IMG/VR virus record: IMGVR_UViG_3300046616_000470 | Span: 1 to 41,247 of that record | Reading direction: 5' to 3' (one strand) | DNA length: 41,247 bases | Origin: a virus | Notes under the pieces: generated by a model | Told to the model about the DNA's origin: nothing | Seen by the model: only the letters and a program-made list of their open reading frames with translations | Databases searched by the model: none | Shown here: in pieces, positions 10,580 to 17,012 of the stretch | How positions within the stretch are numbered: the first letter of the stretch is position 1 | Layout: every line of letters begins with the position of its first letter | Program-made: the position numbers and the translations under genes

Positions 10580-11342
10580 CTTCGGCGCTCACATGGACCG
10601 CAAATTCGGCGTCATCGGCCGTCAGCCAGCGAGATGCTTCGATCATGGCGAATACTCGGCGGTCATCCTCAAGGGTGGCAACCTGTCCGGGTGTCCCATC
10701 TGCGCGAGCAACAAGCGCGACATGCAAGAGCTCGAGCGCAAGCGCTGTCAGTTTCGGATAGTTCAACAATCAATCGCCCGGATTCCGAAGCGTTTCGCGG
10801 AAAAGACATTCGTCGATTTCGTCGTGTCGAATCCGGCCCAGCAGATTGCCCTGGATGCGTGCACCGACTACGTCGACAACTTTTCGAAGCATCGCCGGGA
10901 AGGTCGCTGCATGTTGCTGTTGGGGAAGGTCGGCACGGGCAAGACCCACCTGGCCATTGCCTCGGCCAACCACCTGATCAACGAATGCATGGTCAAGGCG
11001 ATTTACCGCACGGTGGGCACGCTCATCGGCGAGATCCGGGCGACGTTCAATGATCGCTCAGGCGAGTCCGAGGCGCACATCTTGCGTGAAGTGATCGGCG
11101 CGGACCTACTGGTGCTCGATGAAGTCGGCGCGACCAAGCAGAGCGAGTTCGAGCTGGCCACCCTGTTCAGCATCATCAACGGTCGTTACGAGCAATGCCG
11201 TCCGACGATCATCGTCAGCAACCTGTCTCCCGCCGAACTGAACGACGCCATTGGTGCGCGCTGTGTCGATCGCATCCGCGAGAACGGCTGCATTGGCGTG
11301 CCATTCGAGTGGGAATCTCAACGCGGTAAGGAGGGCTTCTGA
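10560..11342 (+). CDS. DnaC-like helicase loader ATPase
   Basis: 260 residues from ATG 10560 (AAGGAG site). N-terminal Cys26 and CPIC (45-48) may bind zinc. AAA+ core with Walker A GKVGTGKT (122-129) and Walker B LLVLDE (183-188), sensor segment TIIVSNLSPAELNDAIGARC and an Arg-finger region DRIRENG. Phage DnaC/P-type proteins load the host DnaB helicase onto the phage origin. Translationally tied to the upstream initiator (20-bp overlap) and downstream gene (TGATG). Confidence 0.9.
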   Translation: MAPSVSNFGAHMDRKFGVIGRQPARCFDHGEYSAVILKGGNLSGCPICASNKRDMQELERKRCQFRIVQQSIARIPKRFAEKTFVDFVVSNPAQQIALDACTDYVDNFSKHRREGRCMLLLGKVGTGKTHLAIASANHLINECMVKAIYRTVGTLIGEIRATFNDRSGESEAHILREVIGADLLVLDEVGATKQSEFELATLFSIINGRYEQCRPTIIVSNLSPAELNDAIGARCVDRIRENGCIGVPFEWESQRGKEGF

Positions 11343-11842
11343 TGAACGCCGCCAAGCAACAAAGCGTGCTCGCCGGGCAATCGTCGCTCGCCCGCAAAGT
11401 GTTCCGGGTCGTGCCAATCCAGGAGCGCTGGAGTGCCCACGATATTTTCAATTCTCTGTTGGTTGCCGAAGCCACGGGGGCCCAGTTCCCGGCTGTCCGT
11501 CGCGGCCTGGGCGAGTTGAAGGAGGCAGGTCTCATTCGCGAACCCGTTAACGGTCATTTCCAGCGTACCGCCATCACCATCAAGCCTCAGAGAGAGCAGA
11601 GCATGTCGAAAGAAACCAATCCGGCCATCGTTGCTATCAAGAAAGCCGAGGTCAGTGCTCTGGATACATTGGCGGTGCTGTCCGGTGAGGTAATCAGTTT
11701 TTCCGAGGAGGTCGGTCAGCGAATGAAAAAGCTCGCGGCGCGTATCGAAGAAGTGGCTCTTTCCGTCGAGACAGAGCGCGAGGCCAACGCTGAAGCACTC
11801 GACAAATTCAAGCTGCTGCAATCTCTGCTGAAGGGGGGCTAA
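11342..11842 (+). CDS. Helical early protein with possible winged helix, function unknown
   Basis: 166 residues. The N-terminal third (RWSAHDIFNSLLVAEATGAQ then PAVRRGLGELKEAGLIREP) has the layout of a winged-helix domain. The C-terminal half is a long coiled coil (ISFSEEVGQRMKKLAARIEE then ALSVETEREANAEALDKFK). The start overlaps the DnaC stop (TGATG) and the stop overlaps the recombinase start (TAATG), so all three are co-translated. An adaptor for replication or recombination is possible but not supported directly. Confidence 0.6.
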   Translation: MNAAKQQSVLAGQSSLARKVFRVVPIQERWSAHDIFNSLLVAEATGAQFPAVRRGLGELKEAGLIREPVNGHFQRTAITIKPQREQSMSKETNPAIVAIKKAEVSALDTLAVLSGEVISFSEEVGQRMKKLAARIEEVALSVETEREANAEALDKFKLLQSLLKGG

Positions 11843-13182
11843 TGGGCAATCGGACGGCCGTGGTGAAAACCCTGACGGTGAAGCTGTCGGACGCCGAGAT
11901 CGAGCGGAACGCCAAAAAATTGCATGTCCGTGATCTGCGTGATGCGAGTCATCCGGCGTTGCATTTTCGCTTCGCAAAGAATCGTTCTCGTGGCTCTTGG
12001 TACTTACTCAGCAAGCGCGCCTGGCATCGTATTGGTGGATTCCCGGATCTGAGCACCAAGCAGGTGGTTACGGCGCTGCCGACTGTCCGCCTGCGGGTTG
12101 CTGCCGAAGAAGGTTCGACCGTTTCCAAGTGGGTCATGACCGGTGAGCTGATTGAGTGGTACGCCGAGCGCATGGCGCGTGATCGCAACTTGTCCGGGAA
12201 GCGCAAGAAAACCGGTGCCTCTATGATCAAATGCCATCTGATGCCGCGTCTCGGCGATCTACCGTTGACCGGTATCGACAAGGCAGCCCTCGATAGCCAG
12301 CTCATGTGGCCTTTGCAGGAAAGCATTTCCATCGATTACGTGCGTTCGGTGTTCCAGCTGTTGGCCCTGGCATTCCGGCAGGCGTTCAAGTTGGGCCTGA
12401 TTTCGTCCAACCCGATGGCGAGCATCAAGTTCAACGACTTCTCCAAAGCCAAGGTCGGGATCAAGCCTTCCCGGTTGCGTGGTACCCAACTCCAAGGCCT
12501 GATGAGTCGCTTGCTCGGCGCCATGGCGAACAACCCTGCGGACTGCCTGTTGGCTCTGATGATGCTCTGCCATGGCACCCGCATCGGCGAAACCCGGCAG
12601 GCACGCTGGTCGCACATCAGTCTGGCTGAGCGTGAGTGGTTCATTCCGGCCGAACACACCAAGACCGGAGTCGAGCATCACCTGCCGTTGACCGACCAGG
12701 TGCGCAAGGTGCTCATCAGCTATCGCGAGATCCAGCGGGCCAAAGGGTATGACGGTCAGTTCCTGTTCCCGTCCCGTAACGGAAAGGCACTCAGCGAAGG
12801 GCAGGCGAGTGCCGTGTTCGTGCGGCTGGGGCAGGGTGAGTGGACCAGTCACGATCTGCGCAAGGTAGCTCGTACCGGCTGGGCAGACCTCGGCATCGAT
12901 CACTTGATTGGCGAACTGCTGATCAACCACGCGATGGGGCACAACGTGAAGGTGTACATCCAGTCGGATGTGATGGGTCGCAAGCGCGATGCCCTGGAGC
13001 AGTGGCATGCGCTTTTAGATACGAAGGGTTTTGACCAGATTCATATGTTGACCGGCGTTAGATTCGGAGATTCCGGTAATTCGCTGGAAGCCGCACAGGA
13101 CAAGGGCTGCAAGGCTATTCAAGAATCAACCATAGGCGAGGATTCAAAACATGAAAAAAGCCCAGGCCCATGGCTTTCGTAA
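11842..13182 (+). CDS. Second tyrosine recombinase, in the replication operon
   Basis: 446 residues with an N-terminal arm-binding-like part, a core-binding part (about 95-200) and a complete catalytic set: Arg247 (CHGTRIGE), Lys274 (HTKTG), His337/Arg340 (SHDLRKVART), His367 (AMGHN) and Tyr372 (VYIQS). It has the canonical HxxR box, which the left-end integrase lacks. Its position between the helicase loader and Q is far from any att site, so roles in dimer or concatemer resolution, or in excision at another time, are possible. It overlaps the next gene by 32 bp. The 60 residues after the Tyr region are an unusual polar tail. Confidence 0.85.
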   Translation: MGNRTAVVKTLTVKLSDAEIERNAKKLHVRDLRDASHPALHFRFAKNRSRGSWYLLSKRAWHRIGGFPDLSTKQVVTALPTVRLRVAAEEGSTVSKWVMTGELIEWYAERMARDRNLSGKRKKTGASMIKCHLMPRLGDLPLTGIDKAALDSQLMWPLQESISIDYVRSVFQLLALAFRQAFKLGLISSNPMASIKFNDFSKAKVGIKPSRLRGTQLQGLMSRLLGAMANNPADCLLALMMLCHGTRIGETRQARWSHISLAEREWFIPAEHTKTGVEHHLPLTDQVRKVLISYREIQRAKGYDGQFLFPSRNGKALSEGQASAVFVRLGQGEWTSHDLRKVARTGWADLGIDHLIGELLINHAMGHNVKVYIQSDVMGRKRDALEQWHALLDTKGFDQIHMLTGVRFGDSGNSLEAAQDKGCKAIQESTIGEDSKHEKSPGPWLS

Positions 13183-13483: not shown

Positions 13484-13990
13484 ATGATGGTTCGAAAACC
13501 AGCGTTACACCCGTTAGGTGATACGGAATACCTTTTAGAGCAATGGGGATGGTGGCGTATGGATGGAAGGGGAATCCCCAGTTATGCGTCGCCCATGTTG
13601 GCACTGATGCGCGATGCAATGCCGTCGCCTGGCAAGCCGTACTGCATCACCGACGAGCTTGCCTGTGTCGTGGATGCCGCATTGGCTCGCCTTTGCAAAC
13701 GTGATCAGCAGATGGGGGATATTGTCTGGCTGTACTTCGGGGCGAAATGGCCGGCAATTCGCGTCGGTCGATATCACCAGGTAAGCGAAGGGAAAGCTCG
13801 GGAGCTGATGAAGGCCGGGGTGGCATGGATTGATTGCGTTCTCGAAAGCATCAAGGATGGGGGCTGGACAGGATATTCGGAAAACCATTCCGATAGCCCA
13901 CTCTTAGGGATTGTCGAAATCACAGCTGGTAATTGCACAGACTTGCCCCCCAATTGCATACCGCCTGACCAGGTATTGCATCAGTATTGA
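13484..13990 (+). CDS. Antitermination protein Q-like regulator of late genes
   Basis: 168 residues. HPLGDTEYLLEQWGWWRMDG, YASPMLALMRDAM, ITDELACVVDAALARL, RDQQMGDIVWLYFGAKWPA and the helix-turn-helix-like VSEGKARELMKAGVAWIDC match phage antitermination Q of the Pseudomonas/lambdoid type. Such proteins join RNA polymerase at the late promoter and let it read through terminators. It is the last early gene and is followed by the rloAB insertion, not directly by lysis genes. The repeated late-gene hairpins downstream fit Q-dependent readthrough. Confidence 0.85.
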   Translation: MMVRKPALHPLGDTEYLLEQWGWWRMDGRGIPSYASPMLALMRDAMPSPGKPYCITDELACVVDAALARLCKRDQQMGDIVWLYFGAKWPAIRVGRYHQVSEGKARELMKAGVAWIDCVLESIKDGGWTGYSENHSDSPLLGIVEITAGNCTDLPPNCIPPDQVLHQY

Positions 13991-14321
13991 CTACTTTTTT
14001 CGAGAGCTTGAGTGGCCAAGTCCCAGTGACAAACGGCCGCTTTTGACGATAGCTGCGTGTCGGATAAAAGGCCTCAAACCGGTGACGCAGGTCTAGGTAG
14101 ACAGGGTAGGCGCGAATTTTTTCAGGGATATCCAGTGGGCGGAAAAGTCTTTCCGGTTAGGTGAAAAGTTTTTCCGATAAGCTCGGTTCGTAACGCGTCA
14201 TCTCGGTGGTATCGGAGGATGCGTGTTACGGGCCATTCGCACGCATGCAGTCCTTTGCAATGCATTACGGCCCAGATGCCTGAACCCGCTTAATCGATGC
14301 CTATCGGAAAACTAGTTTTAC
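13991..14321. other. Non-coding gap after Q, with GGAAA-type dyads and a structured segment
   Basis: No credible gene. It contains CGGAAAAGTCTTTCCG (14140-14155), then a 23-bp arm at 14157-14179 whose imperfect complement lies at 14302-14325, overlapping the rloB stop. The ~120 bp between the arms can fold: GTAACGCG near 14190 against CGTGTTAC near 14220, and GGGCC near 14230 against GGCCC near 14270. A late promoter and antiterminator loading site would be expected around here. The arms may instead mark the edge of the rloAB insertion. Confidence 0.45.
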
Positions 14322-14993
14322 CTAAGCTTCTGAGAATTTTAAAAGCTGTTCCACAAGCATATGAACGTGGGTCGATGGATTGTCTTGGCCTGTCGCATTC
14401 ATGTCCTCAATAGCACGTTGAGAATGGGATATAGCATCCGTTTGCTTGGTTTTTAACGATGCATACAATCCTTTCACGCCTTTGGTATAGCCCTTGATGT
14501 GTGTTTGAACCTGTTTACAGACACTTCCGGCAACACTAGTGTTGCCTTTTCCTTGAAATGGAGCTCGGTAATATTGAAAGTGCAACAATAGCCAGTATTC
14601 AAAGCATGGGATTGAGAAAACGGCAGTGATAGGTATTTTTTCTTTTTTTGATTTTTCGATCAGGGCGCAAGCTCTAAAGAAACTCTCGTGATTATCTTTG
14701 TCAAAAACACAAAAGATTTCCTCAACCGTTTCTCCATCTTTTATCATGTCTTTATAAAGCTGCAAGGCATGCTCGACAACGGATATTGGTGCGGAACCGC
14801 ATTCGCCGCAGACCTTTACTGTAATGCTGGCTAGGCGCTCATAGTTTCTTAAGTCGTTAAAATATTCTGGTTCGGTCTTTTTCCCTTCGCATACTATCAA
14901 GTAAGTAGGGGTGGTGTCTTTCACTGCCCCTCTTCTTGATAGGGATCTTGTGCTTTTTCCTTTTCTTCTATGGAACAAGTCTTCAGATCCCAT
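14322..14993 (-). CDS. rloB: RloB-like protein, TOPRIM-type putative nuclease
   Basis: 223 residues. A basic N-terminus (about 1-28) precedes YLIVCEGKKTEPEYF (Glu36), then FCVFDKDNHESF (Asp98, Asp100) and SIPCFEYWLLLHF (Glu132). This acidic set and order fit the TOPRIM-like fold of the RloB family. RloA/RloB genes were first named as R-linked ORFs inside restriction-modification loci. By analogy with OLD/Gabija and PARIS, an ATPase partner probably senses a phage and licenses a TOPRIM nuclease; that is inference. It overlaps rloA by 11 bp. Visibly AT-richer than its neighbours and on the opposite strand to the late operon, so it is inserted cargo. Confidence 0.8.
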   Translation of the reverse strand: MGSEDLFHRRKGKSTRSLSRRGAVKDTTPTYLIVCEGKKTEPEYFNDLRNYERLASITVKVCGECGSAPISVVEHALQLYKDMIKDGETVEEIFCVFDKDNHESFFRACALIEKSKKEKIPITAVFSIPCFEYWLLLHFQYYRAPFQGKGNTSVAGSVCKQVQTHIKGYTKGVKGLYASLKTKQTDAISHSQRAIEDMNATGQDNPSTHVHMLVEQLLKFSEA

Positions 14994-16257
14994 TGAAGTT
15001 CATATCCTTAATAAATGGAACTGCGCCGTAGCGACCCGACAAATAGCCCTTCTCAATCGCTTCGCCGTCGCGAATTTTATAATCAGACAAGGGGTAAAGC
15101 TCCGAGGCATGAAATTTGTTCTTTTTAAGAAGCCACACTTGATCCCTGCGGAGGATTTTTTGCGAAAGAATTGTAGTGTCGTGCGTAGTGAAAATGATCT
15201 GTGCGTTAGATCCTGATTTGTGAAGAATGTCAACCAAATGGTGCACAATCAGGGGGTGAAGGCTGCTGTCGAGTTCGTCGACAAAAAGTACCAGGTTATT
15301 ACTGATGACGTCGATCCAAGGGCCCGCGAAATTAAATAAGCCCTGAGTTCCTTTAGACTCTTCAGCTAATTTAAACCTAACGGCCTCACCAGCATCATCC
15401 GTCCTGACAAAACTAACTTCGTGGTACTCTTTATCTTTCAGTGATTTGGTAATTTCTTCTTTGAAAACAGTTGGGATATGATCCGGGAATTTCATATCCA
15501 TGTATTTTAGCGTTTCTACTTCGATGTTTGATAATGGGATGTCAGCGCTACTGATGAATTCAAGAACACTCTTTTTAAACTCACTATCGAGGCAGGATTC
15601 TGCCGTGAATTCCGATGAGAGGCCATCAGGGCGAAGTGTTGCCAGTCTGCGGAAGAACCAATTGTATACTGGAGTAAGTTGTTCGTTATTCAACTGGATC
15701 GCAGTAGATAGGTAGGAAGCGTTCTGGCGGGTTTGTTTTTGCCACCCACCGCGCATGCGTCCCCCCTCAAAGTATTTCGAGTACTTATAAGCATATGCAG
15801 CTGTTTCTGGGTCGTAAATCCTATGGAACCACTTTTGCGGTACTCCCTTAGGAAAGGCAATCAACCATTCTTCTGTTACACGTTCTTTAGTTGCACATAA
15901 GCCGTATTCGTAGCGGACACCGTCTTCAATAAAGATGATCTCAAAGTTTGAAGATTTGTTTCTGGTATCTTTCGACAAACGGAACGGTGTAACGTCAATT
16001 TCCTCGCCTGCCTGGGATTTTGGCGCGGAATTTAAAACAAACGACTCCACAAACTTCATCGCTTCGAGGAGAGTAGTTTTACCAGCGCCGTTTGGGCCAT
16101 ATATCACTACGGATTTGAGTAAGCGTGGGCAATCTGCAATGCCTGTCTCAAATGTATTTTCTTGTTCATTTTCTTTGTAATACCGAGACGCAACCATGCT
16201 TAGCTCGCAGACATCCTTGACTGATCGATAATTTTCGACACTGAACTGCACGAGCAT
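14983..16257 (-). CDS. rloA: RloA-like AAA15-type ATPase
   Basis: 424 residues. The N-terminus FSVENYRSVKD is typical of ABC/SMC-like AAA15 ATPases. Walker A GPNGAGKTT (54-62), signature-like ESKGTQGLFNF (300-310), Walker B NLVLFVDELDSSLHP (321-335) and H/D-loop IIFTTHD (354-360) are all present. The centre is a variable helical part that would form the partner or sensing region. ATG 16257 has an AAGGAA site. It is read first, with rloB translated from its last codons, so the two products should be made in fixed ratio. Two inverted repeats lie upstream. Best reading: ATPase sensor of a two-gene defence pair carried by the prophage. Confidence 0.85.
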   Translation of the reverse strand: MLVQFSVENYRSVKDVCELSMVASRYYKENEQENTFETGIADCPRLLKSVVIYGPNGAGKTTLLEAMKFVESFVLNSAPKSQAGEEIDVTPFRLSKDTRNKSSNFEIIFIEDGVRYEYGLCATKERVTEEWLIAFPKGVPQKWFHRIYDPETAAYAYKYSKYFEGGRMRGGWQKQTRQNASYLSTAIQLNNEQLTPVYNWFFRRLATLRPDGLSSEFTAESCLDSEFKKSVLEFISSADIPLSNIEVETLKYMDMKFPDHIPTVFKEEITKSLKDKEYHEVSFVRTDDAGEAVRFKLAEESKGTQGLFNFAGPWIDVISNNLVLFVDELDSSLHPLIVHHLVDILHKSGSNAQIIFTTHDTTILSQKILRRDQVWLLKKNKFHASELYPLSDYKIRDGEAIEKGYLSGRYGAVPFIKDMNFNGI

Positions 16258-16298
16258 ATTGTCTTTCCTTGGTTTTTTTTGCGGATTTTCTGCAAAAA

Positions 16299-16339
16299 AT
16301 GGTACGAAATTCGAGTCTAGCCTTGATGCTTCGTACCAT
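16299..16339. promoter_or_regulatory. Inverted repeat upstream of rloA, possible operator
   Basis: ATGGTACGAA (16299-16308) and its exact complement TTCGTACCAT (16330-16339) are separated by 21 bp, starting 42 bp before the rloA start. Symmetric arms about two helical turns apart suggest a dimeric repressor site or an RNA hairpin in the rloA leader. Confidence 0.5.
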
Positions 16340-16458
16340 CAACACCTACATACAAGTTTTTCGAGGCTGGCGAGGTGGGCAGCGCTACTGCTTGGCATTA
16401 ATTTTCAGCGAGGAGACCCGCATCGGCGAAAAGCCGCTCGGGGGAGCGATCAAAATAC

Positions 16459-16501
16459 CTATAAAAACAGTTGTCCATATGGAATAGCTCTGTTTTTATA
16501 G
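16459..16501. promoter_or_regulatory. 12-bp perfect inverted repeat between rloA and the late genes
   Basis: CTATAAAAACAG (16459-16470) and CTGTTTTTATAG (16490-16501), 19 bp apart. The gap 16258-16676 has no convincing gene. This repeat lies midway between the divergent rloA and holin genes and could be a terminator-like hairpin, an operator or part of a late promoter. It does not match the CTGT-N8-ACAG LexA consensus. Confidence 0.45.
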
Positions 16502-16538
16502 CAACGTGTTCAGCTGTACAGCGCGACACCACAGAGGA

Positions 16539-16605
16539 GCTCGGCCATTGTGCCGGGCTTTTTATTTGCTACGCCAAAGCCTCGCCATTGTGCGGGGCTT
16601 CTTTG
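16539..16605 (+). terminator. Two tandem hairpin terminators before the holin
   Basis: GCTCGGC/GCCGGGC (16539-16558) followed by TTTTTATTT, and GCCTCGC/GCGGGGC (16579-16598) followed by TTCTTTG. The same hairpin style recurs before several late genes. Here it would stop leaky transcription into lysis genes unless Q-modified polymerase reads through. Confidence 0.65.
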
Positions 16606-16676
16606 TTTTTGGGATTCCCATCAGCGGAGAACACGACCTTTTGAAACCTCAATTCCCTTGTCGGGAACGTACTGAG

Positions 16677-17012
16677 ATGTTGCCCATGCCGGAAAAACCA
16701 GATACTTGGGCCATCATTTTCCTGTGGCTGAGTCAGCATTCGCAGACCATTTGGGCGGTATTTCTGTCGCTGTGCATGACCGTGCTGCGTGTGTTTTACA
16801 CCGGTGGCACTTGGAAGGATGCACTGATCGAAGGCCCTATGTGCGTCCTGCTCTCCTTGAGCATTATCTGGGGCTTTGAGCTGATGGGGTTATCGTTGTC
16901 GCTTGCCCAGCCGGTTGGCATCTGGGTGGGCTTCCTCGGGGTGAAGAAGGTCGCTTACTGGGCAGATCGGATTGCAGAAAGCAAGTTTCCTAAATCGGAT
17001 TCGGCGCAGTGA
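16677..17012 (+). CDS. Lambda S-like holin
   Basis: 111 residues beginning MLPMPEKPDTW, close to the lambda S start with its MPEK segment; LRVFYTGGTWKDALIEGPMC matches the lambda region around its second transmembrane segment. Three hydrophobic segments are visible (about 10-35, 52-70, 75-92), then a charged tail (ADRIAESKFPKSD), the class I holin layout. Two Met codons three apart (16677, 16686) could give a dual start, as in lambda holin/antiholin. The frame is open to 16506 but without coding character. Holins form the inner-membrane lesion that times lysis. Unusually, no endolysin gene follows. Confidence 0.85.
   Translation: MLPMPEKPDTWAIIFLWLSQHSQTIWAVFLSLCMTVLRVFYTGGTWKDALIEGPMCVLLSLSIIWGFELMGLSLSLAQPVGIWVGFLGVKKVAYWADRIAESKFPKSDSAQ

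What the first reader, a model, noticed from the sequence alone, without database searches (positions are those of the whole stretch)
14322..16257. RloA-RloB ATPase/TOPRIM pair carried as cargo between antiterminator Q and the holin
Two overlapping, AT-rich minus-strand genes interrupt the late operon of a GC-rich prophage. One has all motifs of an AAA15 ATPase; the other has the acidic residues of a TOPRIM-like nuclease. The architecture parallels OLD/Gabija and PARIS defences, but RloA/RloB are known mainly as R-linked ORFs with little mechanism. A prophage late-region slot suggests a superinfection-exclusion hotspot where different prophages may carry different systems.
Basis: partly seen in the sequence, partly recalled or inferred. 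Interest (0 to 1): 0.85.

Follow-up and report, generated by a model that had tools for sequence, protein, structure and literature searches.

The report
AbiL defence cassette in prophage hotspot
A Pseudomonas prophage carries a two-gene anti-phage module of the known AbiL family, slotted just after its late-gene regulator at a spot where sister prophages carry other defence genes; the module is ordinary in kind, but the slot looks like an undescribed reservoir of prophage-borne immunity.

Summary
In detail: two intact, overlapping, AT-rich minus-strand genes (14322-14993, 14983-16257) lie between antiterminator Q and the holin of a complete Pseudomonas prophage. They are not orphans: they match the PADLOC models of AbiLi (3.8e-91) and AbiLii (6.8e-29) and Pfam RloB (2.1e-40), and profiles of their relatives recognise both genes of an annotated lactococcal abortive-infection pair. 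RloA is a Rad50/PtuA-like ABC ATPase. RloB has the conserved Glu and DxD motifs of a TOPRIM nuclease, though no fold or profile search confirmed that fold. Most likely RloA holds RloB inactive until infection, then RloB cleaves nucleic acid, probably RNA. That mechanism is inferred.

The pair does not interrupt the late operon. In 12 relatives a conserved promoter-terminator element starts 7-9 bases after the Q stop; here it starts 2,481 bases after it, about 200 bases before the holin. Sister prophages hold other cargo in this gap: Detocs-like genes, a Cas3-less type I-C Cascade, PDC-S49 ATPases, a TIR-SIR2 protein, a RelA/SpoT pair. A 92%-identical RloA with similar upstream DNA sits in an unrelated phage. 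The pair is a new member of a known kind; the slot is the more interesting part.

The parts
13484..13990 (+). late antiterminator Q; C-terminus about 40 aa longer than in PseuP_224, because the usual stop is replaced by DNA shared with L008/L014/L107
   Evidence: PF06530 7.1e-9; alignment with PseuP_224
13860..14047 (+). left flank of the slot, shared by sister prophages L107, L014 and (first ~149 nt) L008 at 80-86%; homology then stops
   Evidence: blastn
14322..14993 (-). RloB/AbiLii, predicted TOPRIM-type nuclease effector (toxin), 223 aa; conserved E36, D98, D100, E132
   Evidence: PF13707 2.1e-40; PADLOC AbiLii 6.8e-29; invariants; model pLDDT 87.5
14983..16257 (-). RloA/AbiLi, ABC-type ATPase (predicted sensor and keeper), 424 aa; K60, D327, E328, H359 invariant
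   Evidence: PADLOC AbiLi 3.8e-91; invariants; model pLDDT 89.1 matches Rad50/SMC/PtuA
16275..16299 (-). inverted repeat TTTTTTGCAGAAAATCCGCAAAAAA just before the rloA start; possible operator; identical in L002/L137
16314..16342 (-). promoter-like TTGATG-N17-TAGACT of the pair; conserved as TTGAAG-N17-TAGACT in L137
   Evidence: inference, not found by the stricter consensus scan
16471..16563 (+). conserved late-leader element: TTGTCC, GGAATAGCTCTGTTTTTATAGC, then terminator GCTCGGCCATTGTGCCGGGCTTTTT; presumed Q-dependent late promoter and tR'
   Evidence: conserved in 18 phages including this one; 7-9 nt after the Q stop in empty phages
16577..16600 (+). second terminator-like hairpin before the holin
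16676..17012 (+). lambda-type holin; the mechanical ORF starts at 16506, but the Pfam match begins at residue 63, so the ATG at 16676 is the likelier start
   Evidence: PF05106 1e-21, residues 63-159; sequence

Best explanation
This is an AbiL-family abortive-infection cassette carried as lysogenic-conversion cargo. RloA (AbiLi), an ABC-type ATPase, is made together with RloB (AbiLii) from their own promoter in the lysogen and keeps RloB inactive. When an incoming phage produces a trigger (unknown), RloA's ATPase cycle releases or activates RloB. RloB, a Glu/DxD TOPRIM-type metal nuclease, then cleaves nucleic acid, most likely RNA such as tRNA as in PARIS AriB, and stops translation and phage growth. 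The cassette sits in an exchangeable slot between the Q stop and the Q-dependent late promoter, where it disturbs neither early nor late transcription; related prophages hold other, mostly defence-like, cargo in the same slot. Shown here: family, motifs, slot, exchange, purifying selection. Shown elsewhere for relatives: toxicity, neutralisation in one relative, phage resistance of lactococcal AbiL. Inferred: keeper role here, RNA as target, trigger, expression in the lysogen, and that the leader is the Q-dependent promoter.
For: PADLOC AbiLi 3.8e-91 and AbiLii 6.8e-29; RloB PF13707. Profiles of viral relatives find both proteins of the Lactococcus prophage proPhi7 pair annotated 'abortive phage resistance protein' (4e-73, 5e-21), with Glu and DxD conserved. 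RloA fold = Rad50/SMC/PtuA head. Catalytic residues invariant. RloB model has a Glu after strand 1 and DxD after strand 3. RloA beside RloB in 22 of 22 Pseudomonas loci. dN/dS about 0.03 for both genes. Cassette plus upstream DNA also in an unrelated phage backbone, 81% DNA identity. Slot occupied by other defence genes in relatives; 15 of 33 slot ORFs match PADLOC, against a minority of 100 non-slot ORFs. Literature: RloB is OLD_TOPRIM-like and a C. algidicarnis pair was tested as a neutralised toxin pair (PMC10440598); F. nucleatum AbiLii is toxic in E. coli (PMC3985639); AriB, an ATPase-partnered TOPRIM effector, cleaves tRNA (PMC12409363).
Against: L. lactis AbiLii was not toxic in E. coli, and F. 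nucleatum AbiLi did not neutralise its AbiLii (PMC3985639). Foldseek of the RloB model found no TOPRIM structure (best PDB hit E 0.036; in the viral library only another RloB is significant), and hhalign with OLD and DUF4435 profiles gave under 1% probability, though aligned at the correct EG motif. No sequence evidence names the target or the trigger. Expression from the lysogen is not shown.
Confidence: 0.65

Rival explanations
1. Direct DNA defence: RloA and RloB together form an OLD/Gabija-like DNA nuclease that cuts phage DNA instead of killing or arresting the cell.
For: HHpred links RloB to OLD_TOPRIM (PMC10440598); RloA folds like Rad50 and PtuA, which work on DNA.
Against: Two-gene architecture with a separate TOPRIM protein as in PARIS, whose AriB is a tRNase; AbiLii homologues are toxic to uninfected E. 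coli; no helicase partner gene beside the pair.
Confidence: 0.22
2. Toxin-antitoxin addiction module that stabilises the prophage, with little or no anti-phage role.
For: A relative behaves as a toxin-antitoxin pair; overlapping genes and a possible operator before rloA.
Against: Lactococcal AbiL gives phage resistance (Deng 1999, cited in PMC10440598); the slot is filled by other anti-phage systems in sister prophages, which addiction alone does not explain.
Confidence: 0.1
3. Essential or regulatory phage genes of the late switch.
For: Position between Q and the holin.
Against: Absent from every related phage examined, including those 80-93% identical in a flanking gene; opposite strand, different GC, present in unrelated phages, plasmids and chromosomes.
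Confidence: 0.02
4. Decaying passenger DNA without function.
For: AT-rich foreign DNA.
Against: Both genes full length with all catalytic residues; dN/dS about 0.03 against L137 although synonymous sites are saturated.
Confidence: 0.01

Closest known systems
AbiL (AbiLi + AbiLii), Lactococcus lactis plasmid abortive-infection system, and the PADLOC AbiL models
   Same: Same two-gene ABC ATPase + RloB/TOPRIM-like order; both proteins match the PADLOC models and, through profiles, the annotated lactococcal prophage pair.
   Different: Gram-negative branch, about 26% identical in RloA to the lactococcal prophage protein; prophage Q-holin slot instead of a plasmid; phage resistance untested.
RloA/RloB (R-linked ORFs of type I restriction operons)
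   Same: Same Pfam RloB family.
   Different: No restriction-modification genes beside this pair; neighbours are Q and the holin.
PARIS (AriA + AriB)
   Same: ABC ATPase plus separate TOPRIM-type effector; collinear EG...DxD motifs; RloA matches an AriA model.
   Different: Effector is PF13707, not DUF4435; trigger and tRNA target are not shown for AbiL.
OLD / Gabija GajA / Septu PtuA / retron Ec78 and Ec83 PtuA
   Same: RloA ATPase head fold and partial sequence matches.
   Different: Nuclease is a separate small protein, neither fused TOPRIM nor HNH; no UvrD-like or reverse-transcriptase partner.
P2/P4 prophage defence hotspots (Rousset et al. 2022, PMC9122126)
   Same: Variable prophage slot with interchangeable defence cargo.
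   Different: That paper describes P2, P4, Vibrio cI-integrase and Bacillus slots; this one lies between Q and the late promoter of lambda-like Pseudomonas prophages.

Membership tests
AbiL | AbiLi-type ABC ATPase | tested here: met
   PADLOC 3.8e-91; profile match to proPhi7 ORF55, 4e-73
AbiL | AbiLii/RloB protein encoded next to it in one operon | tested here: met
   PADLOC 6.8e-29, PF13707; 11-nt overlap; proPhi7 ORF56, 5e-21
AbiL | abortive infection / phage resistance | not testable with these tools
   needs phage challenge
AbiL | AbiLii toxicity, silenced by AbiLi | not testable with these tools
   toxicity in relatives: PMC3985639, PMC10440598; silencing reported for a C. algidicarnis pair, not for F. 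nucleatum
TOPRIM nuclease | Glu after strand 1 and DxD after strand 3 | tested here: met
   E36, D98, D100 at those places in the model
TOPRIM nuclease | fold or profile match to a known TOPRIM protein | tested here: inconclusive
   Foldseek and hhalign not significant; published HHpred positive
PARIS | AriB-type effector (DUF4435) | tested here: not met
   RloB hits PF13707 only
OLD/Gabija | ATPase and TOPRIM fused in one protein | tested here: not met
   two separate genes
R-linked ORFs | location inside a type I restriction operon | tested here: not met
   flanked by Q and holin
prophage defence hotspot | conserved flanks with interchangeable cargo, mostly defence genes | tested here: met
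   Q-holin interval 0.16-7.9 kb; cargo types differ

The most novel reading that the evidence does not exclude
The gap between the Q stop and the Q-dependent late promoter of lambda-like Pseudomonas prophages is an undescribed defence hotspot that swaps whole modules (AbiL, Detocs-like, Cas3-less type I-C Cascade, PDC-S49, TIR-SIR2, RelA/SpoT + NA37), and the uncharacterised genes in it (for example L011 442 aa, L063 403 aa, L013 326 aa, L047 HNH) include new anti-phage systems.
Probability: 0.55. Interest if true: 0.62.

Novelty: new member of a known kind. Interest (0 to 1): 0.45.

Why it matters
The pair adds a complete prophage-borne member to AbiL, whose target and trigger are still unknown, with clear residues to mutate (E36, D98, K60, E328). 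The surrounding slot has a simple signature (Q, then a conserved 100-bp promoter-terminator element before the holin), so it can be mined for prophage defence genes, much as the P2 and P4 slots were.

Tried and rejected
Essential phage gene: rejected, since no related phage has the pair in this place. Site-specific integration of the cassette by the tyrosine recombinase just upstream (11842-13182): no matching direct repeats at the two edges of the variable segment, so exchange by recombination in the conserved flanks is simpler. Promoter and terminator consensus scan: no more sites than in shuffles, so the promoter rests on conservation. PDB sequence search with RloB: nothing beyond chance. 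Foldseek of RloB: no significant PDB hit. hhalign of RloB with OLD and DUF4435: not significant. E. coli genomes: no DNA match. Spacer of the L012 mini-array: no target in fetched loci or exact match in IMG/VR. Literature search for a Q-holin defence slot: nothing that described it; most subscription journals are missing from that library, so absence is weak evidence.

Full report
What is there. Two minus-strand ORFs lie at 14322-14993 (223 aa) and 14983-16257 (424 aa), overlapping by 11 nt, in a 41-45% GC patch within 52-62% GC surroundings. Upstream is a Q-type antiterminator (PF06530) and downstream a lambda-type holin (PF05106), followed by a gpA-type terminase. The window looks like a whole prophage: integrase beside a tRNA-Gly/Cys/Leu cluster, CI-like repressor, O-like replication gene, portal, protease, capsid, tape measure and tail genes. 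The record is an IMG/VR virus contig.

Family. The 424-aa protein is AbiLi by PADLOC (3.8e-91), with weaker matches to AriA and PtuA models. The 223-aa protein is RloB by Pfam (2.1e-40) and AbiLii by PADLOC (6.8e-29). Profiles made from 25 RloA and 26 RloB sequences (the window and viral contigs) recognise both proteins of the Lactococcus prophage proPhi7 pair annotated 'abortive phage resistance protein' (4e-73 and 5e-21). In 399 Pseudomonas species genomes, 21 have an RloB, and in all 22 places RloA is its neighbour.

Active sites. RloA: Walker A 54-61, signature 300-306, D327-E328, H359; K60, D327, E328 and H359 are invariant. RloB: E36, G37, K39, E41, D98, F131, E132 and H138 are invariant, D100 nearly so. 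The RloA model (pLDDT 89) matches Rad50, SMC and PtuA heads. The RloB model (pLDDT 87.5) places E36 after strand 1 and D98/D100 at the end of strand 3, the TOPRIM arrangement. Foldseek finds no solved TOPRIM relative, and hhalign with OLD and DUF4435 families aligns the correct EG motif but without significance. Published HHpred work does place RloB with OLD_TOPRIM (PMC10440598). So the TOPRIM reading is likely but not proven here.

Where it sits. In 18 phages, this one included, a strongly conserved element reads TTGTCC-ATATGGAATAGCTCTGTTTTYATAGC...terminator. I take it to be the Q-dependent late promoter and its terminator; this is inference from position and form. In 12 relatives it begins 7-9 nt after the Q stop. 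In the window, L008, L107 and L014 it begins 2481, 4465, 2114 and 7583 nt after the Q stop, always 205-217 nt before the holin match. The pair therefore lies before the late transcription unit, on the opposite strand, and does not interrupt it. A second Q subtype (64-67% identical) has a diverged leader that is likewise displaced towards the holin when cargo is present (L058, L009, L010, L011, L063) and close to Q when it is not (L015). Among 10 Pseudomonas species genomes with the exact element, nine have it directly after a Q match (one of these Q matches is weak) and one, the P. jessenii genome of L008, has it displaced. Variable DNA starts near 14048, after 188 bp shared with L107 and L014, and ends near 16452.

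Exchange. The Q-holin interval (or Q-terminase, where no holin was recognised) ranges from 0.16 to 7.9 kb. Cargo seen in it: Detocs-like PDC-M60A/B/C with a response-regulator/phosphorylase protein (L058); type I-C Cas5-Cas8-Cas7 without Cas3 (L012); PDC-S49 KAP-type ATPases (L010, L054, L086); a TIR-SIR2 protein (L014); RelA/SpoT with NA37 (L009); a type II methyltransferase with an ORC-like ATPase (L008); an HNH protein (L047); a 2OG-oxygenase set (L107); and unknown genes (L011, L013, L063, L110). That PDC-M60 corresponds to Detocs is my reading of the domains (RR + PNP_UDP_1), from general knowledge. Of 33 slot ORFs of 150 aa or more in 13 loci, 15 match PADLOC at 1e-5, a lower bound because not all were scanned. 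Among 100 ORFs from outside the slot in the same loci, the matches were mainly repressor-like HTH models, plus one type II methyltransferase, one type IV restriction enzyme, one PD-Lambda-5 and a DrmD-type model. The tool does not give the exact number of control proteins hit, so the enrichment is qualitative.

Mobility of the cassette. Locus L002/L137 carries a 92%/87% identical pair next to tail genes of a different phage type. The upstream 105 bp is 84% identical, with the 65 bp before the start nearly identical, including an inverted repeat and a conserved promoter-like pair of hexamers. DNA downstream is not shared. dN/dS is about 0.03 in both genes, with synonymous sites saturated. Other relatives sit beside P2-type portal genes, at tail ends or near integrases, and on plasmids.

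Mechanism. Evidence from others: lactococcal AbiL is a phage abortive-infection system (Deng 1999, as cited in PMC10440598); a C. algidicarnis RloB-type toxin with its ATPase was tested as a neutralised pair (PMC10440598); F. nucleatum AbiLii is toxic in E. coli, but its AbiLi did not neutralise it, and lactococcal AbiLii was not toxic there (PMC3985639); PARIS AriB is a TOPRIM tRNase held by an ATPase hexamer (PMC12409363). From this I infer an ATPase keeper and a TOPRIM effector, with RNA the likelier target. AbiL is already reported as 14% prophage-encoded in the P. syringae complex (PMC13182921), so a prophage AbiL as such is not new.

Verdict. The pair is a new member of a known family. 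The slot is the better find: an interchangeable defence site between Q and the late promoter, not described in the papers I could search, though that library is incomplete.

Noticed in passing
L012:12614-15959 and 16329-16426: Type I-C Cas7-Cas8-Cas5 with no Cas3, Cas1 or Cas2 in the slot, plus a two-repeat, one-spacer mini-array with a degenerate repeat; could be a Cascade used as a repressor or as DNA-binding interference.
   Followed up: partly
L058:12188-17317: Detocs-like three-gene set (PDC-M60A/B/C; response regulator fused to a phosphorylase domain) in the same Q-holin slot.
   Followed up: partly
L014:6157-7518: Single protein with an N-terminal TIR and a C-terminal SIR2-like domain, in the slot.
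   Followed up: partly
window 11842-13182: A second tyrosine recombinase (besides the integrase at 1249-2325) sits just upstream of Q and is conserved there in relatives; its role is unclear.
   Followed up: partly
L011:12105-13433, L063:4079-5290, L013:12573-13553, L110:11519-12436: Slot genes with no match in the Pfam, PADLOC or NCBIfam searches they were put through; candidates for unknown defence systems.
   Followed up: partly
L014:5921-6133 and 11149-11388: An ORF-bearing segment appears twice in opposite orientation around part of the cargo, hinting at how modules were added.
   Followed up: no
window 14170-14182 and 14299-14311: Imperfect inverted repeat (13 nt, 116 nt apart) between Q and rloB, of unknown meaning.
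   Followed up: no
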